This document shows positions 11,950-30,920 of a stretch of DNA of 44,024 bases, one piece after another. Numbering within the stretch: the stretch's first letter is position 1; every line of letters starts with the position of its first letter. The stretch is taken from positions 1-44,024 of the IMG/VR virus record IMGVR_UViG_3300049489_001181, one strand, 5' to 3'. The position numbers and the translations under genes are program-made. Below the pieces are notes generated by a model. That model made no database searches and was not told the origin of the DNA. It saw only the letters and a list, made by a program, of their open reading frames with translations. The DNA is from a virus.

Positions 11950-13905
11950 ATGACCGATTCCATTGCCGACTTTCTGGACGACCTGAAGGCAGACACCCAG
12001 CTGGACCCCGGCATTGACGTGTGGGGAAAGAACCCACCGAACAGCGTCTTTGAGCGCGGGTTCAACCTGGAGGGCGCCAAGAAACGCCTGGCGCGCGGCT
12101 ACATCATCAAGGACAAAAAGACGTCCGTGCCGCTGCCGTTTGGCGCGCTGCTGGTGCGCCGCAAGGTCCAGAGGGACCTGGCCAACTTCCTCATCAGTTT
12201 GTTGCGCAAGGGCGGGCCCGTCCGCGTCATTGTGCTGAAGAGCCGCAAACTGGGCGTTTCAACCATTGCGGACTGGCTGCTGGCGGAGCTGAGCATTCAG
12301 ATTCCGGGCTGGTACAGCGCCATCATTGCCCACTCCGAGGACAGCTCAAAGGAGCTGTTTGACGTGGCCCGGCGCAGCATTGAGCGCATGGAGTCCCTGG
12401 GCCTGGTGCCGGAACTCCGCGTCAACAACGACAAGGAAATGGAGTTTGGCGCCCGCGCCCGTGAGGCCCGCAAACAGCAGGCCCTGGCCGGCGAGATGGA
12501 GCACGGCGGGAAGATGAAATCCGGGTCCGCGGGTGATGCCTACGCCCTGTCCGGTCACTCGCCCAACGGACTGCACCTTTCCGAGTGCGCGAAATATGAC
12601 ATTGTGGGTGACATTGACCGCCAGGAGCGCGTCATCCTGTCCGTGCTGGGCTCCATGTCCAAGAGCGGCCCGTCCATTGTCATCGCGGAGAGCACCGCCA
12701 ACGGGCAGCAGGGCTGGTTCTACAAAACCTTCGTGGCCGCCATGAAGGCCCAGGCGGACGGCGACGGCGTGAACTGGGTCCCGGTGTTCATCCCCTGGTT
12801 CAAGGACCCGGACTGCTGGGCCGAGGTACCGAGCGGCTACGTGTGGGAGAAATGGGACGCGGATGACCGGGCCCGGGAAAAGCGCCTGGTGGAACAGTAC
12901 AAACTCAAGCCCCAGCAGCTCTACTTCCGCCGCCGCACGCTGGCCCAGGACCTGGGCATGAACCCGGACTACTGGGACCAGGAGTACCCGGACAGCTGGG
13001 AGACCGCGTTCATCAGCTCCGGCGCCGGCCTGCTTGGGCGGGCCCACCGGGAGCGCATGCGCACCCAGATTCAGGAGCCCATTGCCCACGGGGACGCGTT
13101 TGACACCCCGGAAGGCCTGGTCATCAAGGAGAACCACAACGGGTCCGTGCGCATCTTTGAGCGGCCCATCCCGGGCGCGCATTACGTGCTGGGGGCTGAC
13201 GTTGCGGACGGCGTGACGTTTGCCGTTGACCCCGCGGGGCGCCCGCGGACGGATTCCAGCACGTTCAGCATCATGCGGCGCACCGCCACGGAGCTCATCC
13301 AGGTGGCCGAGTGCGTTTCCTACGCTGACAACATGGAGTTTGGCCGCTCCATCGCCGCCTGGGGCAAGCACTACAACGACGCCGTCATCAACGTGGAACG
13401 CAACCGCGCCCACGGCGTCATCGCGGGACTCACCGTGGCCGAGTACCCAACAGACCGGTTCTTCCGGCCACCGGTAACCGCGTCCGTGTCCGGGTCCATG
13501 GCTGGGTCCTACTTCTTTGTGAAGACCCACGCGTCCGGGAAGCTCATGATTGACAGCCTGGTGTCATGGGCCAACGAGCGGCTGGTCATCCGCAGCGCGC
13601 GACTGCTGGAGGAGCTTGGCACCCTGCGCCGGGACAGCACTGGGCGCGTGGAAACCAACGGCAAAGACCTCACCATTGCGCTCTGCATGGGCATTGTGGT
13701 GGACCAGTTCGAAACCATCCCGCTGGAGGCCGTCCCGGGCGCGCTCGCCAAGGTGGAGTTCAGCCCCAACGAGGACCCGCGGTGGGCGTGGGAGGCCAAG
13801 CAGAAGGAGTTGAAGGAAAAGGCCCCAGACGGCTACGACAACGGCATAGACGGCTGGGGCGGTGGGTGGGATTCAGGCCTCGGTGGCGGGGGCTTTGACG
13901 CCTGA
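11950..13905 (+). CDS. terL: Terminase large subunit (about 651 aa)
   Basis: ATP-driven motor and nuclease that packages DNA through the portal. The ATPase part has a Walker A-like LKSRKLGVST at residues 96-105, a Walker B strand LHLSE at 208-212 and the coupling motif ESTANG at 247-252. The C-terminal RNase H-like nuclease shows the acidic triad candidates D417 (LGADVADG), E483 (NVERN) and D573 (GKDLTIAL). The start is uncertain: ATG 11941 is in frame three codons upstream, and neither has a good ribosome site. The gene is alone on the plus strand, divergent from portal and overlapping the erf stop by 33 bases. No small terminase was recognised. Confidence 0.9.
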   Translation: MTDSIADFLDDLKADTQLDPGIDVWGKNPPNSVFERGFNLEGAKKRLARGYIIKDKKTSVPLPFGALLVRRKVQRDLANFLISLLRKGGPVRVIVLKSRKLGVSTIADWLLAELSIQIPGWYSAIIAHSEDSSKELFDVARRSIERMESLGLVPELRVNNDKEMEFGARAREARKQQALAGEMEHGGKMKSGSAGDAYALSGHSPNGLHLSECAKYDIVGDIDRQERVILSVLGSMSKSGPSIVIAESTANGQQGWFYKTFVAAMKAQADGDGVNWVPVFIPWFKDPDCWAEVPSGYVWEKWDADDRAREKRLVEQYKLKPQQLYFRRRTLAQDLGMNPDYWDQEYPDSWETAFISSGAGLLGRAHRERMRTQIQEPIAHGDAFDTPEGLVIKENHNGSVRIFERPIPGAHYVLGADVADGVTFAVDPAGRPRTDSSTFSIMRRTATELIQVAECVSYADNMEFGRSIAAWGKHYNDAVINVERNRAHGVIAGLTVAEYPTDRFFRPPVTASVSGSMAGSYFFVKTHASGKLMIDSLVSWANERLVIRSARLLEELGTLRRDSTGRVETNGKDLTIALCMGIVVDQFETIPLEAVPGALAKVEFSPNEDPRWAWEAKQKELKEKAPDGYDNGIDGWGGGWDSGLGGGGFDA

Positions 13906-14586
13906 GCCCATCAGCGGAATGTCATCCGTGACCGACGCGTCAACGGGAGGCGTGAGTTCCTTGCGCTTCGCCTGAATGGCCGCCCGCAACTCTGCGCGCG
14001 CCGGGTGGGACGCGTCTGGAAAGTTCTCCACCACGCCTTTGCTGAGCGCCAGCGAGGCGTCATCCAACTCCTTGGGCGACTTCGCCGCGGAGATTTCTGC
14101 CAGCGCCTTCAACCGGAATGCGTCTGCGCCAGGAGGCGTGGGACGCGGCGCGGCTGGCTTCTGAACCGGCGGGGCGCTGGCGCCGTCATCATCATCATCC
14201 GGGGCCACACCACACAGCGCCATCATCAGGTAGCGGCGCATGTACGTGATGAGCACGCCCGCGGCCTGAATATGCGTCAGCCCCTTGGAATCACCCAGAG
14301 GGGCGGACATCTCGCTTTCAATGTGGGCACCGCCAGCGTGCGCAATGCGGACCGTCACGGACACGTCCCACCCTGCACCATCAATAGGCGCTGAACGCAC
14401 AAAGCTCATGTGGCTCAACCCGTTGTTCGCGAACGGCTCACGCACGGCGTCAATGACGCTGGCCAGCGTGGCGTAGGCGTACTTCATGTGCGGGTTGGTG
14501 CGGTCCTTTTTGGCCGCGGACATTTCGCCCTGGGCCTTGGACATCGCTTCATACAGCGCCTTCATCTGCTCAATGTTCTCGGTCAT
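13873..14586 (-). CDS. erf: ERF-type single-strand annealing recombinase (237 aa)
   Basis: The N-terminal half carries the ERF family signature: KALYEAMSKAQGEM, then TNPHMKYAYATLASVIDAV, then IQAAGVLITYMRRYLMMALC followed by an acidic Asp run (residues about 129-133). ERF proteins anneal complementary single strands for phage recombination and circularisation. The C-terminal half is Pro/Ala-rich and then helical. The ATG at 14586 overlaps the preceding stop (ATGA) after GGGAGACGG. The 3' end overlaps the terL end by 33 bases on the opposite strand. Neighbours are helicase and nuclease genes, giving a recombination module. Confidence 0.88.
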   Translation of the reverse strand: MTENIEQMKALYEAMSKAQGEMSAAKKDRTNPHMKYAYATLASVIDAVREPFANNGLSHMSFVRSAPIDGAGWDVSVTVRIAHAGGAHIESEMSAPLGDSKGLTHIQAAGVLITYMRRYLMMALCGVAPDDDDDGASAPPVQKPAAPRPTPPGADAFRLKALAEISAAKSPKELDDASLALSKGVVENFPDASHPARAELRAAIQAKRKELTPPVDASVTDDIPLMGSGVKAPATEA

Positions 14587-20218: not shown

Positions 20219-20372
20219 CAACAGGCACCTCCATAATGTGCGCGTCCATGCCGCGCTTCACCAGCTGCTCCAGCAGCACGCCCGCACGGTACAACGAACC
20301 GGGCCTGGCGCTGAAGATTTCTTCACCCACCGCCACCACGTAGCGGGGGCCAAGGGGGAACCCGCGCTTCAC
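20085..20372 (-). CDS. Unknown protein, possibly frameshifted at its end (95 aa)
   Basis: The first 55 residues (VVAVGEEIFSARPGSLYRAG and on) have the G+C-rich third positions typical of this genome. After about base 20220 the signal becomes weak in this frame and strong in the neighbouring frame, which opens with ATG 20218. A single-base change near 20220-20240 would end this gene at a TGA that overlaps that ATG, as in the rest of the operon. So the C-terminal 40 residues may not be natural. Function not recognised. Confidence 0.6.
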   Translation of the reverse strand: MKRGFPLGPRYVVAVGEEIFSARPGSLYRAGVLLEQLVKRGMDAHIMEVPVDDALRHVWQREHPGEACAGPGMRVQDCPAESGRLGMLPRTHGGG

Positions 20373-20917
20373 CGATGCACCCAGAACTCAACCTCTTTGC
20401 GCTTCTTCCGCCCAAAGCATCCACCAAGGCTCAGCCCATACCCGCACGCGGCGCCCGCCTGGGCCAGCTTCACCGCGGCCAAAGAGATGGGCATCTCCTG
20501 TGGCATCACGAACGCGCCATGCCCCGGGCCATTCCCGCCGCTGTGCCACAGGACCAGCGATGGCATGCCTGCGTTTGCCACAGCCACTGCGTTTTCATAG
20601 GAGAACTGCTGCACCCAGTCCTCACTGTCACGCACGGTCTCAATGAGGTCATTCATGCGCTGCTCCTTCCCGTCAACCAGGTGCGGCAACTCGCAGCCCA
20701 GGGCCAATGTGGCGTCACTGATGAAGATGTTGCAGAACGTGAGGCCGTCCCGCGGCTGGTACCGCGGAGCCAGGTCCACGCGGAACTGGCGCAGGCATGC
20801 CTCGTAGATTCCCACTGTGACCGGAACGGGGACAGCAAGCATGAGGTCTTCTCGCCGGAAGCTCTTCCATTGCTTCTTGGAATCACTGAGCATGCGCTGG
20901 AATGCTGTGGTGGTCAT
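20369..20917 (-). CDS. NlpC/P60- or CHAP-like papain-fold hydrolase, possible endolysin (182 aa)
   Basis: The central segment GLTFCNIFISDATLALG provides a catalytic-type cysteine (C62) at the start of a helix. About 70 residues on, NANAGMPSLVLWHSGG-type context leads to GPGHGAFVMP with H133 in a strand. Cys then His with this spacing is the layout of NlpC/P60 and CHAP cell-wall peptidases or amidases. No signal peptide is present, so release would need a holin. The chosen ATG 20917 overlaps the stop of an adjacent single-span membrane protein gene. It lies in the early/middle block, away from the holin-like gene. Fold assignment is by motif only. Confidence 0.55.
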   Translation of the reverse strand: MTTTAFQRMLSDSKKQWKSFRREDLMLAVPVPVTVGIYEACLRQFRVDLAPRYQPRDGLTFCNIFISDATLALGCELPHLVDGKEQRMNDLIETVRDSEDWVQQFSYENAVAVANAGMPSLVLWHSGGNGPGHGAFVMPQEMPISLAAVKLAQAGAACGYGLSLGGCFGRKKRKEVEFWVHR

Positions 20918-21177
20918 GGGTAGGGCCTGCACACTTTCTCGTCGCACATCATGATTGCACCGCCGGCGGGTCCGATGACGCGCGCGGCGCACGGCAACAC
21001 AACACCACGCTCCATCATCATTCTGTCAACCTCGCGCATAGCCTGGTGCGTGGCCCACGCGGACATGCAGGTGAGCACGACGCACAGTGACATCACCACC
21101 AGGAACACGTGAACGAGCACCGCGTGGCGGGGGAACAACAAGGAGCGCGGGCGCGGGATAGATGCGGTGGTGGTCAT
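20914..21177 (-). CDS. Single-span membrane protein next to the hydrolase gene (87 aa)
   Basis: A transmembrane helix at about residues 19-42 (VLVHVFLVVMSLCVVLTCMS) follows a short Arg-containing N-terminus, giving an N-in topology. The outer part contains four cysteines (CAAR, MMCDEKVC). Its first five residues (MTTTA) equal those of the hydrolase that follows. It overlaps both neighbours by 4 bases. Next to a putative wall hydrolase it could be a holin- or spanin-like factor, but the sequence does not prove this. The coding strand contains one copy of a 29-base repeat. Confidence 0.7.
   Translation of the reverse strand: MTTTASIPRPRSLLFPRHAVLVHVFLVVMSLCVVLTCMSAWATHQAMREVDRMMMERGVVLPCAARVIGPAGGAIMMCDEKVCRPYP
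20960..20988. repeat. 29-base exact direct repeat, copy A
   Basis: Identical over 29 bases to 28681-28709 (core GGGTCCGATGACGCGCGC). It lies inside the leftward membrane-protein gene; copy B lies inside a rightward gene, so the shared DNA does not reflect shared coding. A GCCG start and CGGC end give slight symmetry. Confidence 0.85.
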
Positions 21178-21398
21178 GTGGCGTCCGATGCAATGACGGC
21201 GACGAGCGTACGACGTGACGCCAGCGTCTCTTTCCGCGCGTCATGGGCCACGCACGCATGCCACGCTTTGCCCGCGCGGCAGTCCCATGCCGTCTCACCC
21301 ACGGGACACACCTGCCCTTCGCATTCCCCGTAGAACTTCCCGAAGTCACTGGACCCAGCGTCAAAGGCGCAGTCTGCACCGCAGTTCATGCATGTCAT
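21174..21398 (-). CDS. Small cysteine-rich protein (74 aa)
   Basis: N-terminal MTCMNCGADCAFDAG, then ECEGQVCPVGETAWDC and HACVAHD: eight cysteines and two histidines in about 50 residues, with spacing that could hold one or two zinc ions. The C-terminal 20 residues are hydrophobic and Ser/Ala-rich without a clear membrane helix. ATGA overlaps with both neighbours. Role unknown; one of several small metal-binding-type proteins of this phage. Confidence 0.7.
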   Translation of the reverse strand: MTCMNCGADCAFDAGSSDFGKFYGECEGQVCPVGETAWDCRAGKAWHACVAHDARKETLASRRTLVAVIASDAT

Positions 21399-21658
21399 GC
21401 CGCAACAACTCCTTTCTTCTTCTCCGGCACATGGTGCCAGCAGTCATCGCTGCACGTCTTCCGCATGCGCGGCTTCTTCTCCTGCGTGAAGGCATCACCA
21501 CACCATGAGCACGGTGTCTCAACCTGCTGAGACAGCAGCATCACGCGGGAGCAGTGGATGCACACGTCCGCAAAGTGTGTCCCGCCGATGGTGTAGAGCG
21601 GGTCGGTCCACGCGTGGAGACATCCCTTGAAGATGGAAACAACGGGTTCACGGGTCAT
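21395..21658 (-). CDS. Small zinc-finger-like protein (87 aa)
   Basis: The start ATG 21658 overlaps the previous stop; a start 12 bases earlier (21670) would be an unusually long overlap. The C-terminal half holds CIHC, CSWCG and CSDDCWHHVPEKKK, a pattern like the small FCS/MYM-type or HNH-associated zinc knuckles (CxxC...TCSxxC). The N-terminal half is globular. It could bind nucleic acid or a host protein. Not recognised beyond the metal-binding pattern. Confidence 0.7.
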   Translation of the reverse strand: MTREPVVSIFKGCLHAWTDPLYTIGGTHFADVCIHCSRVMLLSQQVETPCSWCGDAFTQEKKPRMRKTCSDDCWHHVPEKKKGVVAA

Positions 21659-21882
21659 GGGGATACCCACTTCAACATGCGCTCAAAACCGGACGGCTCC
21701 TTGGGGAAGGCCAGCCTGCAGAGTTCGCGGCGGGCGGCGTCCACCTTCTCACTGTGCGGCCAGTTCATCACCGCAAGTTCGAAGCGGCACAGGGCATCAC
21801 GGAACGCCTCGCGCTGCGGCGCGTCCTGCTGCCACCGGTCCCTGGATGGGTCCTGGTTGTTCAGCATCCGGTATTCAATCAT
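21655..21882 (-). CDS. Small helical protein (75 aa)
   Basis: A charged, Trp/Arg-rich helical protein: residues 17-50 are amphipathic helix (QREAFRDALCRFELAVMNW), followed by KVDAARRELCRLAF. No membrane segment and no metal motif. It overlaps both neighbours by 4 bases. Function not recognised. Confidence 0.72.
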   Translation of the reverse strand: MIEYRMLNNQDPSRDRWQQDAPQREAFRDALCRFELAVMNWPHSEKVDAARRELCRLAFPKEPSGFERMLKWVSP

Positions 21883-22556
21883 GGCACGTCCTCCTCATTC
21901 TGGCACAGCACCACAATGGGCGCGGGCTGGTCCCAGCCCAGCGTGCTGATGAGCGTTCCCTTGGGCTCCGGGTTGTGTTCGCACGCCGCGTAGTGGCGCG
22001 TGCCCGGGTGGCCGCAGAGCGTGCAGCGACTGGATACCACCCGCGTGATTGTTTTTGTGGGTGAGGACAGCGCCGGCGCGTCTTCCGACACCCATCCTTC
22101 GCGCGCCAGCCATTCATCTGCGTACTTCTTCGCCGCCGCCTCAATCCAGAAAAAGGTTTCCGTCCCGTCAAAGCATGAAAGCCACCCTTTTCCCTCGGGC
22201 TTGACGGTGGCCAGACACTCGGGCACCGGGCCGTCCAGGGCCCACCGGTCCACCGCCATTCCCGCGTTGTTCGTCCACACGCTCATGATGAGCGGCTTCT
22301 TCTCGGCGGCGCGGGAGACCAGGGCATATCTGTCAGGGCTTGCTCCATTCCCTGCCCATGGGGCGGGGAACCATCCAGGACGCCCCCTCACCCGCACCTT
22401 GTCCCCCACACGGAACTCCGGGTTACGGAGGTCTGACTTCCTGAACCACAGGTCATCGCCGGCATGCACGTTGCCGCCAGAGCATTGCTCAATCATCCGC
22501 TCCACACCGGGCGGGCACAGCATGATGTCCCCAACGCGGATGTCTTCGAGTGTCAT
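21879..22556 (-). CDS. Unknown protein with KOW/SH3-like and zinc segments (225 aa)
   Basis: The ATG at 22556 (MTLEDIRVGDIML) overlaps the previous stop; an upstream frame extension would overlap it more. VGDIMLCPPG and VGDKVRVRGRPGWF are typical of small beta-barrel (KOW/SH3-like) folds. The middle part is aromatic and beta-rich. Near the C-terminus CTLCGHPGTRHYAACEH gives CxxC...H...CxH, a likely zinc site. The combination suggests a protein- or nucleic-acid-binding accessory factor. No named family. Confidence 0.7.
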   Translation of the reverse strand: MTLEDIRVGDIMLCPPGVERMIEQCSGGNVHAGDDLWFRKSDLRNPEFRVGDKVRVRGRPGWFPAPWAGNGASPDRYALVSRAAEKKPLIMSVWTNNAGMAVDRWALDGPVPECLATVKPEGKGWLSCFDGTETFFWIEAAAKKYADEWLAREGWVSEDAPALSSPTKTITRVVSSRCTLCGHPGTRHYAACEHNPEPKGTLISTLGWDQPAPIVVLCQNEEDVP

Positions 22557-22759
22557 GGCTTCTCCAGGTGAACCAGCACAGGTGCTTTTCGCAGCGGACA
22601 ATCCGGTGGAGCGGCGCTGTCTGCCATACCAACTTCATCAGGGCCGCCAGGGAGCGTGCAGGCGCCGTCTGATGTGACGGGGACATCTGCGCCCAGGTTC
22701 CACCGCACAAACGGACACCACCGACAGCACGTCACCGCGCCAGGGTCACGCGTACTCAT
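22553..22759 (-). CDS. Cysteine-rich CPLR-motif protein, paralogue 1 (68 aa)
   Basis: CCRWCPFVRW near residue 11, a further Cys at about 33, and DCPLRKAPVLVHLEKP at the end. A rightward-block protein (32414-32647) has the same order: CRDCPLSR, GWCSLDGGP, then TCPLRTGSVRVSIKP. The two share Cys spacing, the PP-x-CPLR element and a terminal beta strand, so they look like diverged paralogues on opposite arms. Probably binds one zinc. Role unknown. Confidence 0.7.
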   Translation of the reverse strand: MSTRDPGAVTCCRWCPFVRWNLGADVPVTSDGACTLPGGPDEVGMADSAAPPDCPLRKAPVLVHLEKP

Positions 22760-23055
22760 GGCTTCTCCAAGAGGCGGTTCATTGAGTTGACGATTTCAAT
22801 GCATATCTGCTTGACCGCAATGATGTACGCGCGAACATTGGCGTCATCTGTTGGGTCCCCCCCGCGGGCACCGTCACATGTTACGGCCAGACTCAGGAAC
22901 TGAGCAGCGTCCTGTGCGATGTCGTGGCTTTTCTTCAGGATACCCAGCACACGCGTGCGCTCTGCCCACATATCCTTCGTGGCCGCGTTCAGCCTGTCCT
23001 CGCGCCGCTCCTCGCGCACTTCAGGTGACCCGGCGTCGTCATCGTTGCGGTTCAT
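22756..23055 (-). CDS. Unknown helical protein (99 aa)
   Basis: Highly charged first 40 residues (NRNDDDAGSPEVREERREDR), then two hydrophobic-faced helices (AQDAAQFLSLAVTCDG and VRAYIIAVKQICIEIVNSMN). The pattern suggests a small helical bundle; no membrane helix is long enough. ATG at 23055 overlaps the preceding stop. No function recognised. Confidence 0.72.
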   Translation of the reverse strand: MNRNDDDAGSPEVREERREDRLNAATKDMWAERTRVLGILKKSHDIAQDAAQFLSLAVTCDGARGGDPTDDANVRAYIIAVKQICIEIVNSMNRLLEKP

Positions 23056-23279
23056 TTTGCCTCCTGGAGGCGCACCAGGCGCCCGGCATCATCAACGCAT
23101 GCAAACATTTTCGGGTTCCCGTTCAGGTCCAGCGTGGCCGCCACCCACCAGCCACCTGCAGCGTGGCAGGCAAGGGACCCGGTGGTGTCAGCAACGTGTG
23201 GTGTCTGGCACATGGCCATCAGCGCGAACGGCAGCATCATTGCCACAGCAATGCCGAACGTCGATGCATGCTCACTCAT
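23052..23279 (-). CDS. Small exported or membrane-anchored protein (75 aa)
   Basis: An N-terminal hydrophobic helix (FGIAVAMMLPFALMAMCQ) ends in a Cys, so it could be a signal anchor or a weak lipoprotein-like signal. It is followed by about 50 residues with two further cysteines (LACHAAGGWW, KMFACVDDAG) that may form a disulfide outside the cytoplasm. Overlaps its neighbours by 4 bases. A superinfection-exclusion or envelope role is possible but unsupported. Confidence 0.65.
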   Translation of the reverse strand: MSEHASTFGIAVAMMLPFALMAMCQTPHVADTTGSLACHAAGGWWVAATLDLNGNPKMFACVDDAGRLVRLQEAK

Positions 23280-23455
23280 CCATTCACCGCTTTCTTCGGC
23301 CTGTTCGGCAACTCATCCCCGCTGCACCATGAACACACCAGCCCCTGACACGGGGCACAGAACCCGCGTTTCCGCGCGCCCGGCTCATCCACGCACGCAC
23401 ACGTGATGCCGCACTGGATGCAATGCGGTGATGGTTTCCACAGAGGCTCCCTCAT
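23276..23455 (-). CDS. Double zinc-knuckle small protein (59 aa)
   Basis: Too short for usual ORF limits. The ATG at 23455 overlaps the stop of the 163-residue gene and its own stop overlaps the next ATG, closing what would otherwise be a 170-base gap. Cysteines: HCIQCGITCAC, GFCAPCQGLVCSWCSG, eight or more in 32 residues, a pattern for two zinc ions. It ends with basic residues (RPKKAV). Probably a nucleic-acid- or protein-binding adaptor. Confidence 0.75.
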   Translation of the reverse strand: MREPLWKPSPHCIQCGITCACVDEPGARKRGFCAPCQGLVCSWCSGDELPNRPKKAVNG

Positions 23456-23943
23456 TCTTTCACCTTCGCTTCCATGCGCCGCACCGCCTCTTGCAGCACC
23501 AGCAGGTTGAACAGCGTCAACGGACGGGGCTTCTTGATCATGAGGCGCTCATAGAAACGCCACACGTGCCCCACGCCGATGGCGTGCATGGCCTCCAGAT
23601 ACACGCGGGGCCGGGCGGGCTCCAGCGCGCGAAGGCGTTCGCGCCAGATTTCATCTTCACGACGCGCTGCGGCATCTTCTTCACCTTCCGGCATGGCCGT
23701 CCTGGTGTCCAGGTAGTGCTCGATGCGCATCATGGTGGGGCGCGCCATCTCTTTTCCTCGGCGTGCGTGGACCAGTGCGTGCAGCGGTTGCACCGTCTGG
23801 TAGCCCATGGCTTTGGCCATCAGGGTGAAGTTCGGGTGGTTCCGCAGCTCCTCCTTCACCCGCGCGCGGATTTCCTCTGACCGGCGGATGCTTTCGTTGT
23901 CCGCGTCCACCAGGACGCTGTTGCCTCCGTGACGTGCTCTCAT
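23452..23943 (-). CDS. Unknown protein with a possible HTH segment (163 aa)
   Basis: Residues 35-75 (HPNFTLMAKAMGYQTVQPLH, then a basic stretch and PTMMRIEHYLD) resemble an XRE-like helix-turn-helix in helix order: a short sterile-sense helix, a turn, then a basic recognition-like helix followed by MRIEHYL. The C-terminal part is helical and basic. In an early leftward block it could be a regulator. The HTH call is weak because the turn lacks a clear Gly. Confidence 0.6.
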   Translation of the reverse strand: MRARHGGNSVLVDADNESIRRSEEIRARVKEELRNHPNFTLMAKAMGYQTVQPLHALVHARRGKEMARPTMMRIEHYLDTRTAMPEGEEDAAARREDEIWRERLRALEPARPRVYLEAMHAIGVGHVWRFYERLMIKKPRPLTLFNLLVLQEAVRRMEAKVKE

Positions 23944-24218
23944 GGCTTCTCCTTGGTGTGCCCGTTGGTGGTGGCTTCCACTGCGGCCATGGCGGCCTGG
24001 GGGGTGATGTGTGCCGTCAAGCGCGCGAGACTGGTCACGAAGACCACCACGGCGCTCTCATGGGAGAGACCTCGCTCCGCTACCACGTAGGCGTCCGTGG
24101 CCCGCAGCACAGCCTGCTGGGCTGGGCCATCCCATAGCCACTTCGGGTTCACGTGCGTGGCCTGTTCCAGGCGGGCGATGGCATCGCGCATGAGGGCATC
24201 TTCAACGCTGATGGGCAT
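23940..24218 (-). CDS. Small helical protein (92 aa)
   Basis: The start ATG 24218 is preceded by GGAGGAAG; the frame extends upstream to 24251 but into the previous gene. A soluble, Ala-rich helical protein (RDAIARLEQATHV, ESAVVVFVTSLARLTAHITP) with a polar Lys-rich end. It overlaps the 3' end of the preceding gene by 17 bases. Not recognised. Confidence 0.7.
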   Translation of the reverse strand: MPISVEDALMRDAIARLEQATHVNPKWLWDGPAQQAVLRATDAYVVAERGLSHESAVVVFVTSLARLTAHITPQAAMAAVEATTNGHTKEKP

Positions 24219-24906
24219 GGTCTTCCTCCAGTGTGGGTTCTTGAACAACAACGGTGTCCATATGGGCCACCAGGCGCGCCTTCAGCGCCTCCGTGATTTC
24301 CGGGCCATCTTCGGTCAGGTACTTCATGGCCAGCTGGGTAGCGCGCCACGCGGCACCGGGGTCCTGGCGGTAGGCGTCCATGGCCTTCTCCAGCAGGAAG
24401 CTCCGGGAGCCCAGGCGGATGGGCTCCACCGTGGAGGCCGCGGTGGCGTAGGCGTTCCCCGCGCGCTCCAGCTCTTTGTCAAAGGCCAGGTTCTCCGCCT
24501 CTTGAAACACAGGCCAGAACCGGAACACGCGGTGGTGGACCTCGCGGTACATCACTGGGCGTCTGTGACGGTCAAGGCACTGCTCGCGCTCCCTGGTGTG
24601 CTCATCAAACACATCCAGGTCGGGCCTGGTGCCCACCATGGGCCGCAGGGTGTTCAGCCAGGCCAGGCCGTCCAGGGACGCCCCACAGCCCCGTGGACAC
24701 GCGCAGTGGTGGATGGTGCTCTTGGGGTCCGGGCAGCCTACCGCGGCGCCCCACGCGGGTCTCAGGAGCGGCGGTAGCCATACCCCCTGCTCCCAGGCCA
24801 CCACGTCCTTCTCCTGGACGCGCATCCGGGCCGCCACCATTTTGGTGCTGCACCCCGCACGCATCCGCCCGTACACCAGCATCTGTCTCAACCGCAGCAT
24901 TGCCAT
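24202..24906 (-). CDS. Unknown protein with N-terminal HTH-like and zinc-like segments (234 aa)
   Basis: The first 45 residues (RMRAGCSTKMVAARMRVQEK, then DVVAWEQGVWLPP) follow the XRE helix-turn-helix pattern: helix, then V-AA-M-V as turn region, then a helix ending in W-x-x-G-x-x-x-P. HHCACPRGCG near residue 66 gives a Cys/His cluster. The rest is helical. A role as an early regulator is possible. The start ATG 24906 lies 4 bases after the previous stop. No named family. Confidence 0.6.
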   Translation of the reverse strand: MAMLRLRQMLVYGRMRAGCSTKMVAARMRVQEKDVVAWEQGVWLPPLLRPAWGAAVGCPDPKSTIHHCACPRGCGASLDGLAWLNTLRPMVGTRPDLDVFDEHTREREQCLDRHRRPVMYREVHHRVFRFWPVFQEAENLAFDKELERAGNAYATAASTVEPIRLGSRSFLLEKAMDAYRQDPGAAWRATQLAMKYLTEDGPEITEALKARLVAHMDTVVVQEPTLEEDHAHQR

Positions 24907-24909
24907 GCC

Positions 24910-25302
24910 TCAGCTCCTGTTGTAGCGCTGTCCTGCGTGAACGTCGTTGCGCGGCAGCGGAATCCCTCGTCCGGGTGGCGCCTGCAGTGTCAGCTTCCTG
25001 GCGTTATCAAGGCTCCACCGGGCGTCTCTTTTGTTCCCCCGGGCGCGGTGCCAGCCAGCCTGTTCCAGCGTCCTCACCGCGCTTATGTGGTCTGCCCATT
25101 CATCCGTCACCCAGGCGCTGGGAGCCACGCGCCAGGTCCGCACCATCCTGCGGTCTGGTGACGCCTTCCACCTCCGCAGTGCCTCCTTCCTCCGCAGCTT
25201 CTCCAGCTTCCGCTCAGCCCGCAGGGCGCGACGCTGCCAGCGGATGCGCAGCTTCGTTTCCTCTGCCACAGCGGACGCCAGTGCCAACGTCATATCCTCC
25301 AT
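24910..25302 (-). CDS. Basic coiled-coil-like protein (130 aa)
   Basis: Start ATG 25302 is chosen because AAAGGAGG lies upstream and because it overlaps the stop of a short leader ORF (TGATG); the frame runs upstream to 25482 but without a good start. Residues 10-50 are a very basic helix (RWQRRALRAERKLEKLRRKE), likely a coiled coil or nucleic-acid-binding arm. The remainder is Arg/Trp-rich. Second gene of the early leftward block. Function unknown. Confidence 0.65.
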   Translation of the reverse strand: MEDMTLALASAVAEETKLRIRWQRRALRAERKLEKLRRKEALRRWKASPDRRMVRTWRVAPSAWVTDEWADHISAVRTLEQAGWHRARGNKRDARWSLDNARKLTLQAPPGRGIPLPRNDVHAGQRYNRS

Positions 25303-25391
25303 CACTCGCCTCCTTTCCACGTCGAACGGACCCGCAGCCCAGGACCAGCCACAACAGGACCAGAGAACACCAGGACCATCAACGTGAGCAT
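25302..25391 (-). CDS. Short hydrophobic leader-like peptide, first leftward early ORF (29 aa)
   Basis: A 29-codon frame with a strong ribosome site (ACGGAGGTGG, then ATG at 25391), a hydrophobic N-terminal half (MLTLMVLVFSGPVVAG) and a basic end. Its TGA overlaps the ATG of the 130-residue gene. It is either a tiny membrane peptide or a leader that couples translation of the next gene. Length argues against a stable protein, but the ribosome site and overlap are exact. Confidence 0.5.
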   Translation of the reverse strand: MLTLMVLVFSGPVVAGPGLRVRSTWKGGE

Positions 25392-25452
25392 GCACCACCT
25401 CCGTTCCGCGGCGCATCCTCCTCCCCCCGCTCCCCCCTCCGCAAGAGCAGCT

Positions 25453-25545
25453 CAGTAGCGCGATAACGCAGCGCGTCGGCATGACCGCGCCGCCCGGCTA
25501 CAGAGACCTCTGCCCCGCCAGTAGCGCGATAACGCAGCGCGTCGG
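25453..25545. repeat. 27-bp exact direct repeat pair, 39-bp spacing
   Basis: Copies at 25453-25479 and 25519-25545 (core GCGCGATAACGCAGCGCG) with a 39-base intervening sequence. The motif is rich in GCGC and partly self-complementary. Two copies 66 bases apart just upstream of the leftward block suggest a protein-binding or recombination site. There are too few copies and no cas genes for a CRISPR call. Confidence 0.85.
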
Positions 25546-25596
25546 GAGGGTCTCCGCAACCATGGTGGTCAACGGCTGTTTCGCAGTCACATTTGA

Positions 25597-25608
25597 CAAC
25601 CGCGGTTT
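25597..25608. promoter_or_regulatory. AACCGCGGTT palindrome, operator-like
   Basis: CAACCGCGGTTT contains a perfect 10-base palindrome, and a near-copy, CAACCGTGGTTT, occurs at 26281-26292. The pair brackets most of the control region and could be bound by the same dimeric regulator. Which one is unknown. Confidence 0.4.
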
Positions 25609-25748
25609 GCCACTGTTTTGAGGCCAATGAAATCAGCCATGTAGCGTTTTTACTTGCCATTTGCCTACAGTAGGCCTTCCGGGCAGCATGGAAAAAGACC
25701 ATTGATTTCAGCCGTCTGCAAAATGACACCGGGAAATCCAAAACAACT

Positions 25749-25777
25749 AACCCCTATAGAAGGAGACCATAGGGGTT
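25749..25777. promoter_or_regulatory. 9-bp stem-loop with SD-like loop
   Basis: AACCCCTAT / ATAGGGGTT with an 11-base loop that contains AAGGAG. There is no T-run on either side, so a terminator is unlikely. It lies 13 bases before the tandem CATATG repeats. Confidence 0.6.
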
Positions 25778-25787
25778 CATAGGTGGT

Positions 25788-25817
25788 CATATGGCAACAT
25801 ATGTCAACATATGGTCA
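25788..25817. repeat. Three 10-bp tandem repeats (CATATG units)
   Basis: CATATGGCAA, CATATGTCAA and CATATGGTCA follow each other with a period of 10, close to one helical turn, so the units face the same side of the DNA. Short AT-rich phased repeats occur at origins and regulator arrays. This is an inference. Confidence 0.65.
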
Positions 25818-26004
25818 TATATTCAAGATACAAGCATAAGCAGAACACAAGCAAAGAAGAAACCCCTGCGCGAGACTTTTAAGAAAAATGTACAGGTATT
25901 TGAAGACAGGCTGAATCACTTGTCTTTTTCCATGTACGTCGCTGATTTCCAGTACTTTGTAAGCCGAAAGGTAGTCACCGGTGGGATACGTGACTACCAT
26001 TATT

Positions 26005-26042
26005 GACATGTAGCCTCATCACCTTGACCGATGCTACATGTC
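26005..26042. promoter_or_regulatory. 10-bp inverted repeat overlapping a rightward promoter-like sequence
   Basis: GACATGTAGC (26005-26014) is exactly inverted at 26033-26042. A TTGACC at 26024-26029 and TATGTG at 26047-26052 are 17 bases apart, so the right arm lies in the spacer of a candidate sigma-70-like promoter. A regulator bound to the inverted repeat could control it. The -10 match is only partial. Confidence 0.4.
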
Positions 26043-26428
26043 GGTTTATGTGCGTTTTTCGTTAAGAAGTGTTAAGAAATCAACTTTTGGCACGGGAAAA
26101 AGTTATGCCAACTTTTACCCCCTATACTGTACGGGTGTTCAGTGTAATCCGCCGTTCACGTCGGGAAAAACCGACACTGTGAACACCGGTTCACGTGGCA
26201 TTTTGACCCATAGGGCAAAAAGGGGCGCAAAAGTTGCGCAACTAGGGCCTTGGCTAAGCATGGGTGGGGGGTGTTTTTGTCAACCGTGGTTTATGTCGAG
26301 CGTGGTTGCTAGTAAACTGGCGTTTCCTTTAGCGCGCTACTCCGGGCTCCCGGGGACATTTTTCTCCCGGGGGGGAAAACCATATGGGCAACGCGCGTTG
26401 ACAAATATCCGACCCCCTCCCCCCGGCG

Positions 26429-26477
26429 CCATACACTGCATGGCATGGCTTGTTTGTTTGTGACCATACACCGCATG
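26429..26477. repeat. Two CCATACAC(T/C)GCATG direct repeats, iteron-like
   Basis: Copies at 26429-26442 and 26464-26477, 35 bases apart. Further CCATAC elements occur at 26599-26604 and 26767-26772. An 11-base inverted repeat GTATCGTATGG / CCATACGATAC connects 26477-26487 and 26599-26609. The family of related short repeats over 350 bases is typical of an initiator- or regulator-binding region. Confidence 0.55.
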
Positions 26478-26685
26478 TATCGTATGGCTTTTCCTGGCGC
26501 CGTATCGCGTCCCGATACGCCCCGCCTCACCGCGCCGTAGCAGGCCCCCTGTTTTTCGGGCGGGACATGCCGGCTTATATGGTCATGATGCTACGCTGCC
26601 ATACGATACGCCGCATTGCGGTTGGACCATTCTCCACCCTGCCCTTCGGGCGAAAAAACACACACCACGCCCCGCGCCGCCAAGA

Positions 26686-26739
26686 TGACAAACTTTGTCA
26701 ATGACAAATATTGTCAGCAAAAAGTGACAAACTTTGTCA
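26686..26739. promoter_or_regulatory. Three operator-like 15-bp palindromes upstream of rightward early block
   Basis: TGACAAACTTTGTCA at 26686-26700 and 26725-26739, and TGACAAATATTGTCA at 26702-26716. The first and third are perfect palindromes around one central base. Three sites, two identical, in front of an operon that encodes an XRE-type regulator look like a phage operator set. A half-site TGACAAATAT occurs at 26399-26408. Confidence 0.75.
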
Positions 26740-26750
26740 CCAACGCCCGA

Positions 26751-26768
26751 TGGCAACATGCGTTGCCA
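26751..26768. promoter_or_regulatory. TGGCAAC/GTTGCCA inverted repeat
   Basis: A 7-bp stem with a 4-base loop, 12 bases after the third operator and about 105 bases before the first rightward gene. It could be a further regulator site or part of the early mRNA leader. Confidence 0.45.
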
Positions 26769-26872
26769 TACATAAAAGACAAGTGTTTTCAACGCTACGC
26801 TCTTTTGCTACGCGCTGGCACGCACTTAGCAATGACCAATATTACAATCGCAGGACCACACAGGAGCCGCAC

Positions 26873-27103
26873 ATGCAGACCGTTGACATCACCGTAGCCG
26901 CCCGCCAGCGCGCCGCCTATCAGGCGCCCATCCATATCGCCATCCCCACCCGCGCGGAATACCTGCGCCGTCTGGCCCACGTGGCCGCCCAATGGCCCGA
27001 CCGGCGCCCCGCGCCCGTTGCCGCGCCCGCTTGGGCTCCGGCGCTGGTGAGCGTGATGCAGGCGGCGCTGCAGCGTCCGGTCATTGTCCGGGGGATGCCA
27101 TGA
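26873..27103 (+). CDS. First rightward early protein, unknown (76 aa)
   Basis: The ATG at 26873 follows CAGGAG at the right distance; the longer open frame from 26711 would start inside the operator array. The protein is Ala/Pro/Arg-rich, with a helical start (VDITVAARQRAAYQAPI) and a hydrophobic helix near the end (ALVSVMQAALQRPVIVRG). No family. First gene after the operators, so expressed early. Confidence 0.65.
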   Translation: MQTVDITVAARQRAAYQAPIHIAIPTRAEYLRRLAHVAAQWPDRRPAPVAAPAWAPALVSVMQAALQRPVIVRGMP

Positions 27104-27345
27104 CGCGCCCCAGCTGCGAGGAATGTGCGGGACATCGGTCCCGCCTGTGCGGGCCTACCAGTGTGACCGAGGTGCGCCTAGACCGTGGCGGGTATGACCG
27201 CACGGGGCGCTACTGGGGCGTGGGTGCGCGCCTGTATGTGGCCGTGGATGAGAGCGGGACGGAGCGGCACCAGCGTGCCCTTTCACGGGCCAGTGCGGTG
27301 CGCGTTTTTAGGGAGTCAAACCCACACATGAAAGCGAGGGCGTGA
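27100..27345 (+). CDS. Small protein with N-terminal cysteines (81 aa)
   Basis: The start ATG 27100 overlaps the previous stop (ATGA). CEECAGHRSRLCG near the N-terminus gives a CxxC...H...C cluster. The second half is beta-rich and charged (GRYWGVGARLYVAVDES), then basic helical. Similar small zinc-binding-type proteins fill this block. No function recognised. Confidence 0.65.
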   Translation: MTRPSCEECAGHRSRLCGPTSVTEVRLDRGGYDRTGRYWGVGARLYVAVDESGTERHQRALSRASAVRVFRESNPHMKARA

Positions 27346-27608
27346 TGGGGGACCCAGAGTGCGTTCCGGTGTGCGTGACGTGTTTTCAGGCGGCCGCTGG
27401 TGGACCCATTCGGGTCACCATGGGCCGCCTCACCAGAGGTTCCGTGAACCTCCGGTGTGCCAAGGGCCTGCTGGAGAGAGGTCTGCTGGAGGGCCGGATT
27501 CCTCTGGATAGGCGCCAGACCGAACTATTTGCCACCACCGCCGGTACCCTAGCTCTCGTGGCCTACCAGACCGCGCGGGGGATGCGCGCCATGGCAGGTG
27601 ACAAATGA
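27345..27608 (+). CDS. Unknown small protein (87 aa)
   Basis: Starts at ATG 27345 (or the GTG three bases before) and overlaps the preceding stop. VPVCVTCFQAAAGG gives one CxxC; a basic middle and a helical, Ala/Leu-rich end follow (TAGTLALVAYQTARGMRAMA). Coupled to both neighbours by short overlaps. No family recognised. Confidence 0.62.
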   Translation: MGDPECVPVCVTCFQAAAGGPIRVTMGRLTRGSVNLRCAKGLLERGLLEGRIPLDRRQTELFATTAGTLALVAYQTARGMRAMAGDK

Positions 27609-27847
27609 GCCGCTTCCCCTACACGCAGAGCCGCTTCCCCTACACGCACACCACACCCGCCGGCCACGCCTTCACACAGGGGACGTGTGACCGGTGTGCG
27701 CGCCCCACGCTGGTGGCAGACCATGGCCACGTGCTGACGGGCGGGATGCCGGCCAGCGTGACCGTGGTGCCGCGCCTCCCGGAGGCACTGGCGTGGGTGG
27801 CTGGCGGCTGCACTGAGTGCACCCTCGCGGACGGGGCCGCGCCATGA
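27605..27847 (+). CDS. Small zinc-finger-like protein with internal duplication (80 aa)
   Basis: The N-terminus contains a direct repeat SRFPYTQ / SRFPYTH; at DNA level two 20-base copies with a period of 21 begin at 27608 and 27629. TCDRCARP and GGCTECTLA give two CxxC pairs, likely one zinc site, around a beta-rich core (PASVTVVPRLPEALAW). ATGA overlaps on both sides. The duplication is recent because the copies are identical. Role unknown. Confidence 0.65.
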   Translation: MSRFPYTQSRFPYTHTTPAGHAFTQGTCDRCARPTLVADHGHVLTGGMPASVTVVPRLPEALAWVAGGCTECTLADGAAP

Positions 27848-28401
27848 GGGTGCTCATCGGCTGTGAGTATTCAGGACGTATGCGCCGCGCTTTTGCGGCA
27901 CGGGGTCACGACGCGTGGTCCTGTGACCTGCTGCCCGCTGAGGACGAGGAGACGGCGCGGCACCACGTGGGGGATGTGGTGGCGTTCGCGCGGGCCAGCC
28001 ATTGGGACCTGTGCGTGTTCCACCCACCATGCACGGACCTTGCGGCCAGCGGGGCGCGCTGGTGGGCGGCCAAGGGTGCGGCCAGACGTGACGCGGCGGT
28101 GGCCTTTGTCCGCGCGCTATGGGCCGTGGATTGCCCACGGGTGGCTGTTGAGAATCCCGTGGGGCGCCTGTCCACGCTGTGGGTGCGTCCGACGCAGATT
28201 GTGCAGCCATGGTGGTTCGGGGACCCAGAGTGCAAAGCCACGTGTTGGTGGCTACGTGGGCTGCCGCTGCTTGTGGCTGACAACGTGGTGGCGGGGCGGG
28301 GCCAGAGCGTGCACCGCGCACCGCCGGGTCCTGACAGGTGGAAAGAGCGGTCCCGGACATTTGAGGGGATGGCGCGCGCGTGTGCGGAGCAATGGGGTTG
28401 A
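27844..28401 (+). CDS. Short C5-cytosine methyltransferase-like protein (185 aa)
   Basis: Rossmann-type start RVLIGCEYSGRMRRAF (motif I), CDLLPAED (motif II region), then HPPCTDLAASG with the motif IV PPC (C63) and AVENPVGRL (motif VI ENP). QPWWFGDPECKATCWWL follows. Family members of this size are frequent in phages and lack the large target-recognition domain of full C5 methyltransferases. They may modify DNA or host nucleic acid, or be catalytic with another specificity. No restriction gene is nearby, so anti-restriction is the usual guess. ATG at 27844 overlaps the previous stop. Confidence 0.72.
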   Translation: MRVLIGCEYSGRMRRAFAARGHDAWSCDLLPAEDEETARHHVGDVVAFARASHWDLCVFHPPCTDLAASGARWWAAKGAARRDAAVAFVRALWAVDCPRVAVENPVGRLSTLWVRPTQIVQPWWFGDPECKATCWWLRGLPLLVADNVVAGRGQSVHRAPPGPDRWKERSRTFEGMARACAEQWG

Positions 28402-28472
28402 CCACAGCAACCACCCCGTCACCTCGGTGGCGGTGTGTGTGGTGCGGTCAAGCACCAACAGGGAGGCAACAC

Positions 28473-28733
28473 ATGGCATACATCGCAATCCAGACACGGT
28501 TCATTGGGCCCACCAACCACAAGGGGTCACGCTATGCGGCGTGGGTTATTGGGCGCGCAAAGAAGCGCGTTGTGTTGAGCGCGGACTATGCGCTTGGCTT
28601 GGATGATAACCATTACCGCGCGGCCATGGCCTTGGCTGACCTTTGGCACAAGGAAACCGGCTCCATGGGGAAGATACATTCCGCCGGCGGGTCCGATGAC
28701 GCGCGCGGCAACGTGTACGTGGTGAAAGTATGA
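28473..28733 (+). CDS. Unknown small protein (86 aa)
   Basis: The ATG at 28473 follows GGGAGG; an alternative start at 28392 would add a CxxC segment but lacks a ribosome site. A beta-rich N-terminus (YIAIQTRFIG, then YAAWVIGRAKKRVV) is followed by a helical region. The Gly/Asp-rich AGGSDDARG segment near the end is encoded by the second 29-base repeat copy. Function unknown. Confidence 0.65.
   Translation: MAYIAIQTRFIGPTNHKGSRYAAWVIGRAKKRVVLSADYALGLDDNHYRAAMALADLWHKETGSMGKIHSAGGSDDARGNVYVVKV
28681..28709. repeat. 29-base exact direct repeat, copy B
   Basis: Identical to 20960-20988. It lies in a rightward gene and encodes AGGSDDARG; copy A is read as AARVIGPAGG on the other strand. The 7.7-kb interval between copies covers the whole control region and the starts of both early blocks. 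Confidence 0.85.
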
Positions 28734-28915
28734 ACGACGCCCAGAAACTTAGACTGTGGACGGCGGCCGTTGAGGCCGCGCCCGTCAACACACCCATCAG
28801 CCAGGCGGTGTGGATTCTTTGCTCCAACATGACGCCGTGTGATTGGGAGGTGGAAGGCATCCGGGAAGTGGACGCCAAGGCGTGGGCTGATGAGCTGCGC
28901 GCGAGCGGCCTGTGA
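28730..28915 (+). CDS. Small acidic protein (61 aa)
   Basis: Starts with ATGA overlap. MNDAQKLRLWTAAVEAAPVN is a helical start, CSNMTPCDWEVEGIREVDAK the middle, and a helical acidic end follows. The two cysteines are six apart; no metal site is obvious. Function unknown. Confidence 0.6.
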   Translation: MNDAQKLRLWTAAVEAAPVNTPISQAVWILCSNMTPCDWEVEGIREVDAKAWADELRASGL

Positions 28916-29091
28916 AGTGGTACCCGCGCGCACGTGACGCCCCCATTGTGCGCCGCGTCATGGAGCACATGGCGAAGCATGGCGTGGGTGCAGCGGATGC
29001 GTGTAGGTCATTGGGCCTGGACCGGTGGTTCATCAAGGGCGTGGCGAACCACCGGTCCCTCTTTCTGTGGGTACGCTTGGGAGGTGAGTGA
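28912..29091 (+). CDS. Short HTH-like protein (59 aa)
   Basis: Below usual ORF limits. GTG 28912 overlaps the previous stop (GTGA) and its TGA overlaps the next ATG, so it closes the operon. Residues 15-43 (RVMEHMAKHGVGAADACRSL, then GLDRWFIKGVANHR) have the spacing of a helix-turn-helix: helix, GVGAA turn, recognition helix. It may be a DNA-binding partner of the XRE protein that follows. The HTH call is weak but the coding call is firm. Confidence 0.65.
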   Translation: MKWYPRARDAPIVRRVMEHMAKHGVGAADACRSLGLDRWFIKGVANHRSLFLWVRLGGE

Positions 29092-29405
29092 TGGGGGCGT
29101 TTGCAGAACTTCACCGCATGGCGCGCCAGCGCGCAGGCATCGGGTTGCGCGAGTGGTCCCGTGACTACGTGGGATTCTCACCCACCTATGTCTCAAGGAT
29201 AGAGAGCGGCGGAGTGGAGCCGTCAAGGCGGTACGTGTACGCGTGCCAGTCTACCTTGGCGGACGTGAAGGCCGCCGAGTGGTGGTGCGCGACCTGCATG
29301 GTGCCGGATGAACTGACGGACGCCATACTGAAGTCACCTGAGACCCTGGATGCAGCAATGAAGGCAGCGGGTGTGCAGTGGTGGCGCGTGGGGTTGGGCA
29401 AATGA
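29091..29405 (+). CDS. XRE-family HTH transcription regulator (104 aa)
   Basis: Residues 6-40 (LHRMARQRAGIGLREWSRDY, then VGFSPTYVSRIESG) form a classical XRE helix-turn-helix: LREWSR, turn GFSP, recognition helix TYVSRIE. The C-terminal part (WWCATCMVPDELTDAIL) may dimerise and has a CxxC. In phages this type represses or tunes early promoters. The three palindromes upstream of this operon are a natural target. ATG at 29091 overlaps the previous stop. It is a small Cro-like candidate; a full CI-type repressor is not seen. Confidence 0.8.
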   Translation: MGAFAELHRMARQRAGIGLREWSRDYVGFSPTYVSRIESGGVEPSRRYVYACQSTLADVKAAEWWCATCMVPDELTDAILKSPETLDAAMKAAGVQWWRVGLGK

Positions 29406-30106
29406 GCGCCATACTCTACGCGCGGGTCAGCACGGACCGCCAGGAAACGGACGGCACCAGCCTGGACGCCCAGGTTGCGGAGCTTGAAAGGGTGGCCGCC
29501 CTTGAGGGCGTGCCCGTACGCGGGGTGTTCAAGGGCGCGGAAAGCGGAAAGCTGGAAATGGCCGCCCGGCCCACCCTCATGGCCGCCATGGGTGCAGTAG
29601 AGCCTGGGGACGTGTTCTATGTGACCAAGGTTGACCGCCTGAGCCGCTCCGTCTTTGTCGGGGAAGGTATCATCCGCGCGCTCAAGGGCCTGGGCGCCAC
29701 CGTCCGCATCCTTGAGGTGTCCGGTGACGACGCGGACCCCCAGGTCATCTTCCTGCGCCAGGTCCTGGCGGCAGCGGCGGAGCTTGAGCGGGCCAACATC
29801 GTTGCGCGCACCATGGCGGGGAAGATGCGTGCAGTAGCGCGCGGTGGGCGGTGGGGCGGCGCCGGCTTTGGCGTGCGCGGCGCGGCGGGCGGGGGCCTGG
29901 AGCCCTGCCCGGAGGAACAGGATACCCTGCGTGCAGTACGCGCCGCGCTGGAAGCGGGTAGTACCTGGCGCCACATCAGGGAGACGGTACCGGGGCGCAC
30001 GCGTGTGGACAAAGACGGCAAGGCGGTGCGCGGGCAGGTGTCCTTTCAGGTTATTTCACGGGTACAAAAACAGATGGATGAGGAGGCGGAACATGAAAAC
30101 TTTTAA
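29402..30106 (+). CDS. Serine recombinase (resolvase/invertase type, 234 aa)
   Basis: The catalytic domain has YARVSTDRQ with the nucleophile S10 and R8, SLDAQVAELE, and KVDRLSRS (78-82, the conserved arginines). After the long E-type helix (residues about 105-140) a small DNA-binding domain follows (GRWGGAGFGV, QDTLRAVRAALEAGSTWRHI). The size is between resolvases (about 185) and large integrases (over 400), so it is not a large serine integrase. It may resolve multimers, invert a segment or integrate. ATGA overlap with the XRE gene. No paired core site was found next to it. Confidence 0.85.
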   Translation: MSAILYARVSTDRQETDGTSLDAQVAELERVAALEGVPVRGVFKGAESGKLEMAARPTLMAAMGAVEPGDVFYVTKVDRLSRSVFVGEGIIRALKGLGATVRILEVSGDDADPQVIFLRQVLAAAAELERANIVARTMAGKMRAVARGGRWGGAGFGVRGAAGGGLEPCPEEQDTLRAVRAALEAGSTWRHIRETVPGRTRVDKDGKAVRGQVSFQVISRVQKQMDEEAEHENF

Positions 30107-30920
30107 TCTTGAAAACATTTCACTGAAGAGCGGTTCACACGAAAAGCGTGCAGCCGGAATGTGCGCCCTGGAAGCGGTGGCCTGGCTTGCCGGCGAAGCG
30201 CACAGTGACCGACCGGCATGCGCCTGCCCGGTCGTCAGCCAGCTTATGCGCTCCTGGAATGACGCGCTTCCGGATGACGCCACGCGGGACCGGCTGCTGA
30301 AGCCGTTGCTGCCCGCGTTGGTCGGCAGTCGCAGCACGTCGGAGGTCGAGACGCGCCGCTCTCGTATGGCGGTGGACTGGATGGTCCGCGTCCACGCCCC
30401 GGCGTGGCTAGCCATGGCGCCGGCACTGTTGCCCCTCGCGGAGCGCCTGAAGGCGTTGCCGGAAATCACCACCACGCATGCGCTGAAGGACGCCCTGCCG
30501 CTCTTGTGTGAGGCGGCAGATGAAGCGGCCGCTGCGGGGGCTGCTGCGCGGGCTGCTGCGTGGGACGCTGCGGGGGCTGCTGCGCGGGCTGCTGCGGGGG
30601 ACGCTGCGTGGGACGCTGCGTGGGTCGCTGCGTGGGCTGCTGCGTGGGACGCTGCGCGGGACGCTGCGCGGGCTGCTGCGTGGGACGCTGCGTGGGTCGC
30701 TGCGTGGGTCGCTGCGCGGGCTGCTGCGTGGGACGCTGCGGGGGCCGCTGCGGGGGCTGCTGCGGGGGCTGCTGCGTGGGACGCTGCGCGGGCTGCTGCG
30801 GGGGCTGCTGCGGGGGCTGCTGCGTGGGACGCTGCGTGGGCGAAACTCCGACCCACCGTGGAGGCGCTGCAGTTGTCCGCCCAGGGGCTCGTTCGCCGGA
30901 TGTGCGAGGTGAAGCCATGA
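30093..30920 (+). CDS. Alanine-repeat protein (275 aa)
   Basis: The start ATG 30093 follows AGGAGG; its 5' end overlaps the recombinase stop. Residues 1-140 are globular (GMCALEAVAWLAGEAHSDRP, a recurring opening in phage proteins of this type). Residues 147-249 consist of about 20 near-copies of a five-residue unit (AAWDA, AARAA, AAGAA) from 15-base DNA units. A short conserved end follows. The repeats probably form long amphipathic helices or a solenoid. The family is known in phages of high-GC hosts, but its function is unknown to me. Confidence 0.75.
   Translation: MKTFNLENISLKSGSHEKRAAGMCALEAVAWLAGEAHSDRPACACPVVSQLMRSWNDALPDDATRDRLLKPLLPALVGSRSTSEVETRRSRMAVDWMVRVHAPAWLAMAPALLPLAERLKALPEITTTHALKDALPLLCEAADEAAAAGAAARAAAWDAAGAAARAAAGDAAWDAAWVAAWAAAWDAARDAARAAAWDAAWVAAWVAARAAAWDAAGAAAGAAAGAAAWDAARAAAGAAAGAAAWDAAWAKLRPTVEALQLSAQGLVRRMCEVKP
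30531..30840 (+). repeat. 15-bp tandem repeats encoding Ala-rich pentapeptides
   Basis: About 310 bases made of variants of GCTGCGTGGGACGCT. Codon-level variation (TGG, CGG, GGG; GAC, GCT, GTC) points to expansion by unequal crossing-over or slippage. Such arrays differ in copy number between close relatives and open long spurious frames on all strands. Confidence 0.85.

What the first reader, a model, noticed from the sequence alone, without database searches (positions are those of the whole stretch)
20960..28709. 29-base exact direct repeat 7.7 kb apart in genes of opposite direction
20960-20988 and 28681-28709 are identical, although the first lies in a leftward gene and the second in a rightward gene. 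Chance identity over 29 bases in 44 kb is very unlikely even with GC bias. The interval spans the control region and the starts of both early blocks, so the repeat could be a cis-acting site (recombination, replication, packaging) or a scar of gene exchange.
Basis: seen in the sequence. Interest (0 to 1): 0.72.

Follow-up and report, generated by a model that had tools for sequence, protein, structure and literature searches.

The report
Stray 29-base copy between phage genes
Two unrelated genes of an uncharacterised bacterial virus share an identical 29-letter stretch that chance cannot explain, most likely because a scrap of one gene was copied into the other; nothing found shows that it is a working control or recombination site.

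Summary
CCGCCGGCGGGTCCGATGACGCGCGCGGC occurs exactly twice, at 20960-20988 and 28681-28709, in direct orientation, with flanks no more alike than chance. It is the only interspersed exact match over 17 nt in the window; codon-preserving shuffles never exceeded 19. The window is a whole IMG/VR virus record (44,024 bases, linear). Both copies lie inside small, translationally coupled genes on opposite strands, read as AARVIGPAGG in an orphan membrane-protein gene and as SAGGSDDARG near the C-terminus of a phrog_3199 gene. The copy-2 peptide fits its family's C-terminal motif, modestly (top 4.6% of replacements); the copy-1 gene has no known relatives. Best reading: a recent, frame-preserving ectopic copy from the right-hand gene into the left-hand one; the mechanism is only inferred. 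The cis-site reading gains no support: no degenerate third copies, symmetry typical of random windows, hairpin not significant against shuffles, absent from IMG/VR and GTDB, and an orientation that would make recombination delete the control region. An assembly fault is unlikely but cannot be excluded without reads. Low to moderate interest.

The parts
20960..20988 (+). copy 1 of the 29-mer; the gene's sense strand is -, read AARVIGPAGG; probably the derived copy
28681..28709 (+). copy 2 of the 29-mer; sense strand +, read (S)AGGSDDARG; probably the ancestral copy
20914..21177 (-). 87-aa orphan gene with one hydrophobic (membrane-like) stretch that carries copy 1; 4-nt (ATGA) overlaps with both neighbours
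28473..28733 (+). 86-aa phrog_3199 gene (unknown function) that carries copy 2 in its C-terminal part; ATGA overlap with the next gene
20369..20917 (-). 182-aa orphan gene directly downstream of the copy-1 gene; without the 29 bases the copy-1 gene would read in frame into it
29402..30106 (+). serine recombinase (Resolvase domain, 234 aa), about 700 bp from copy 2; candidate actor in a rival explanation
13873..14586 (-). ERF-type single-strand annealing protein; possible actor in ectopic copying or in recombination at the repeat

Best explanation
The 29 bases are a short ectopic duplication. The stretch that codes for the C-terminal turn of the phrog_3199 gene (copy 2) was copied, probably recently, into the orphan membrane-protein gene of the leftward block (copy 1), in frame but on the other coding strand. 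Shown: exact identity, sharp edges, two unrelated genes, both reading frames intact. Inferred with modest support: the direction from copy 2 to copy 1. Inferred only: the mechanism, most plausibly replication-coupled template switching or ERF-type strand annealing that patched a stretch rather than a plain insertion, because the reading frame after copy 1 looks native. No function of the repeat is needed.
For: It is non-chance by a wide margin. Edges are sharp and flanks unrelated. Copy 2 sits where the family has GG, a D/N-G turn and then a YVFV-like strand (G72 in 76% of 51 relatives). The real ten residues beat 95.4% of random ten-residue replacements under a family profile built without this protein. 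Codon fit is better for copy 2 (2.35) than for copy 1 (0.50), and removing copy 2 truncates its gene. The 14 codons after copy 1 fit the present frame (+2.15) far better than the frame a 29-base removal would give (-6.8), which suits a frame-preserving patch. The genome shows other short duplications: an exact 21-bp tandem copy at 27607-27648 and a 12-nt array at 30527-30841. An ERF annealing gene is present; [quoted passage not shown]
Against: Direction rests on modest statistics (p about 0.05) and a loosely conserved C-terminus. No relative shows the state before the event. The copy-1 gene has no homologs, so its segment cannot be shown to be foreign. Without the 29 bases the copy-1 gene reads in frame into the next gene, which a plain insertion could also explain. 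None of the comparison repeats was a clean precedent: those found lay at gene starts or leaders, inside related sequence, or were not fully resolved. Zero mismatches also fit selection for identity.
Confidence: 0.52

Rival explanations
1. The 29-mer is a shared cis-acting element (a protein-binding DNA site or an RNA hairpin) kept identical by selection in both divergent transcription units.
For: Exact identity; one copy in each divergent block; the 29-mer can form a 10-bp interrupted hairpin spanning positions 3-29, at -16.7 kcal/mol, more stable than 99.8% of sampled 29-mers in the window.
Against: Hairpin is p about 0.09 against dinucleotide shuffles, and 3-5% of equally GC-rich windows are as stable; with flanks the copy-1 strand folds otherwise. 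Only two copies, no degenerate ones. Both lie within coding sequence, oppositely placed relative to transcription. Absent from IMG/VR and GTDB.
Confidence: 0.13
2. The repeats are crossover sites of the phage's own serine recombinase.
For: A Resolvase-domain gene lies about 700 bp from copy 2; length is near that of 26-28 bp resolvase or invertase sites (own knowledge).
Against: Best dyad symmetry 8 of 14, matched by 24% of random windows. Direct orientation would delete the control region and parts of both blocks, and the joined flanks give no intact gene. No inverted copy exists.
Confidence: 0.06
3. Assembly artefact: one copy was introduced or misplaced during metagenome assembly.
For: The window is a metagenomic virus record (IMG/VR) with no second assembly found.
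Against: A false join passes through a shared word once and does not make two copies with intact, different flanks. Both copies sit in open, ATGA-coupled genes, and removing copy 2 breaks its gene.
Confidence: 0.1
4. The 7.7 kb between the copies is an integrated element bounded by attachment cores.
For: Direct repeats of this length flank integrated elements of tyrosine recombinases (own knowledge).
Against: No tyrosine integrase was detected among the genes profiled inside the interval; it holds parts of both operons and the central control region; the reconstructed empty site yields no continuous gene.
Confidence: 0.04
5. Both copies came separately from a third replicon, host or another phage.
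For: Phage genomes are mosaics (own knowledge).
Against: Not in IMG/VR or GTDB; only chance-level matches in phages and plasmids; copy 2 fits its own family.
Confidence: 0.05

Closest known systems
Short ectopic (templated) duplications made by replication template switching or microhomology-mediated repair
   Same: Short, sharp-edged exact copy at a distant site with unrelated flanks.
   Different: Best described in eukaryotes (e.g. PMC7954356, PMC5120786, seen as abstracts); no pre-event sequence or junction microhomology can be shown here.
Relaxed recombination by phage Rad52-like annealing proteins (Red-beta, Erf; PMC3945230)
   Same: This phage encodes an ERF-family annealing protein; such proteins act on short or diverged homology.
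   Different: The described events are exchanges between homologous phage regions, not a 29-nt copy between unrelated genes of one genome.
Resolvase or invertase crossover sites (res, hix, gix)
   Same: Similar length and a nearby serine recombinase gene.
   Different: No significant dyad symmetry; coding location; direct orientation across the control region.
Attachment core repeats (attL and attR)
   Same: Direct repeats flanking several kilobases.
   Different: No tyrosine integrase found inside; the interval is core phage sequence; the empty site restores no gene.

Membership tests
Short ectopic duplication | two identical copies, non-chance, unrelated flanks | tested here: met
Short ectopic duplication | one copy is ancestral in its context | tested here: inconclusive
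   copy 2 fits the phrog_3199 C-terminus, p about 0.05
Short ectopic duplication | relative lacking the derived copy | not testable with these tools
   no relatives found
Serine recombinase crossover site | imperfect dyad of half-sites around a 2-bp core | tested here: not met
   8 of 14 symmetric; 24% of random windows do as well
Serine recombinase crossover site | recombination by the cognate enzyme | not testable with these tools
   needs protein and substrate
Attachment core pair | integrase inside the element and a coherent empty site | tested here: not met
   empty-site reading gives no intact gene; no integrase detected inside among the genes profiled
Dispersed regulatory repeat (operator, promoter or iteron) | several copies, mostly intergenic | tested here: not met
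   two copies, both coding, no degenerate copies above background
Known structured RNA | Rfam match | tested here: not met
   none in the window at gathering thresholds
phrog_3199 (copy-2 gene) | profile match over the protein | tested here: met
   E 4e-9, residues 5-85

The most novel reading that the evidence does not exclude
Because the copies are direct but lie in oppositely transcribed genes, the leftward and rightward messages carry perfectly complementary 29-nt stretches, each shortly upstream of a coupled start codon (about 43 nt in the left transcript, about 21 nt in the right). They could pair in trans, so that the two divergent blocks regulate each other's translation or decay through matching coding sequence.
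Probability: 0.04. Interest if true: 0.75.

Novelty: new member of a known kind. Interest (0 to 1): 0.2.

Why it matters
If it is an ectopic copy, it is a small, clean example of how phages without close kin create new coding sequence from scraps of their own genes, read on the opposite strand. If selection kept the copies identical, it would be a rare coding-embedded signal linking the two divergent blocks. As it stands it is a mutational scar of limited consequence, plus a possible weak spot for deletion of the control region by an annealing recombinase.

Tried and rejected
Chance (rejected). Third or degenerate copies (none). Palindromic crossover site (not above background). Hairpin element: stable for the genome as a whole but not against dinucleotide shuffles; Rfam none. 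Widespread motif: 22- and 23-mer cores absent from IMG/VR and GTDB; weak matches in phages and plasmids are chance level. Relatives by DNA and by the portal, TerL, copy-1 and copy-2 proteins: none close. Relatives of the neighbouring methyltransferase abound but share almost nothing else. Plain 29-bp insertion in copy 1: predicts that the frame fused to the next gene is native, but codon usage favours the present frame. Integrated element: empty site not coherent.

Full report
OBSERVATION. The two 29-mers are present, identical, maximal and unique in the window. Among matches more than 1 kb apart the next longest is 17 nt, and codon-preserving shuffles of all predicted genes give maxima of 15-19 nt. 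The repeat is therefore not chance, although the window as a whole has about twice the expected number of 13-14-mers.

CONTEXT. The window is a whole IMG/VR virus record, classed linear, 44,024 bases, 64% G+C. It encodes a tailed phage with a distant portal and TerL, a helicase, a primase-like protein, an ERF annealing protein, SSB, a PD-(D/E)XK nuclease, a serine recombinase and a GroES-like protein. Copy 1 lies in a leftward 87-aa orphan gene with a single hydrophobic stretch. Copy 2 lies in a rightward 86-aa gene of phrog_3199, a family of unknown function. Both genes overlap their downstream neighbours by the 4 nt ATGA, as do many pairs in this genome. The copies are in direct orientation on the + strand, so relative to transcription they are inverted.

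WHICH COPY IS OLDER. In 51 distinct relatives of the copy-2 gene the C-terminus follows a loose pattern of GG, a D/N-G turn and a YVFV-like strand. The repeat encodes the GG-to-G part, and the NVYVV that follows it lies outside the repeat. Under a profile built without the window protein, the real ten residues score better than 95.4% of random ten-residue replacements. Codon fit also favours copy 2. No relative of the copy-1 gene was found in the collections searched. The direction copy 2 to copy 1 is therefore favoured but not proved.

HOW COPY 1 AROSE. Without the 29 bases the copy-1 gene would run in frame into the next gene, as if an insertion had split a longer gene. But the codons after copy 1 fit the present frame much better (LLR +2.15 against -6.8), so I prefer a frame-preserving patch. 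Template switching during replication or strand annealing by the ERF protein are reasonable agents; neither is shown. Phage Rad52-like recombinases, an Erf among them, recombine regions with only short homology (PMC3945230). Other short duplications in the window show that such events are not foreign to this genome.

IS IT A SITE? Tests for a cis-acting role were negative or weak: no extra copies, dyad symmetry at background, hairpin p about 0.09 against dinucleotide shuffles, no Rfam match, no occurrence in IMG/VR or GTDB, and only chance-level matches in phage and plasmid records. The serine recombinase is near, but direct repeats would lead to loss of the control region, and the joined flanks make no coherent gene.

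BASELINE. In 12 other phage records (some cut to 44 kb) and 160 viral loci, interspersed exact repeats of 20-47 nt do occur. Most are terminal repeats, lie at gene starts or leaders, or sit in related flanking sequence. The set is small, mixed in G+C and not fully classified; a 29-mer well inside two unrelated genes is uncommon in it but not outlandish.

LIMITS. Reads were not available, so an assembly fault is unlikely rather than excluded.

Noticed in passing
25453-25479 and 25519-25545: Exact 27-bp direct repeat CAGTAGCGCGATAACGCAGCGCGTCGG, 66 bp apart, just upstream of the leftward block in the noncoding control region; a better candidate for an operator or iteron pair than the 29-mer.
   Followed up: no
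30467-30901: Array of about 26 twelve-nt units (consensus GGCCGCTGCGTG) inside gene 30093-30920, encoding a four-residue protein repeat.
   Followed up: no
27607-27648: Exact 21-bp tandem duplication near the start of gene 27605-27847, giving SRFPYTQSRFPYT.
   Followed up: partly
25687-25722 and 25899-25934: Imperfect 36-nt inverted repeat (78%) and several terminator-like hairpins in the AT-rich control region; terminator-like sites number 15 against 6.8 expected in 20300-29500.
   Followed up: no
18340-18744: Phage gene for a GroES/Cpn10-like co-chaperonin (Pfam E 3e-11).
   Followed up: no
29402-30106: Serine recombinase of 234 aa with only the Resolvase domain matched in Pfam; its sites in this genome are unknown and no long inverted repeat pair stands out.
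   Followed up: partly
11836-13905: Terminase large subunit on the + strand amid leftward genes, very distant from known ones (best 26% identity).
   Followed up: partly
20915-20917 and 21175-21177: Two consecutive orphan genes start with nearly the same codons (ATGACCACCAC, MTTTA).
   Followed up: no
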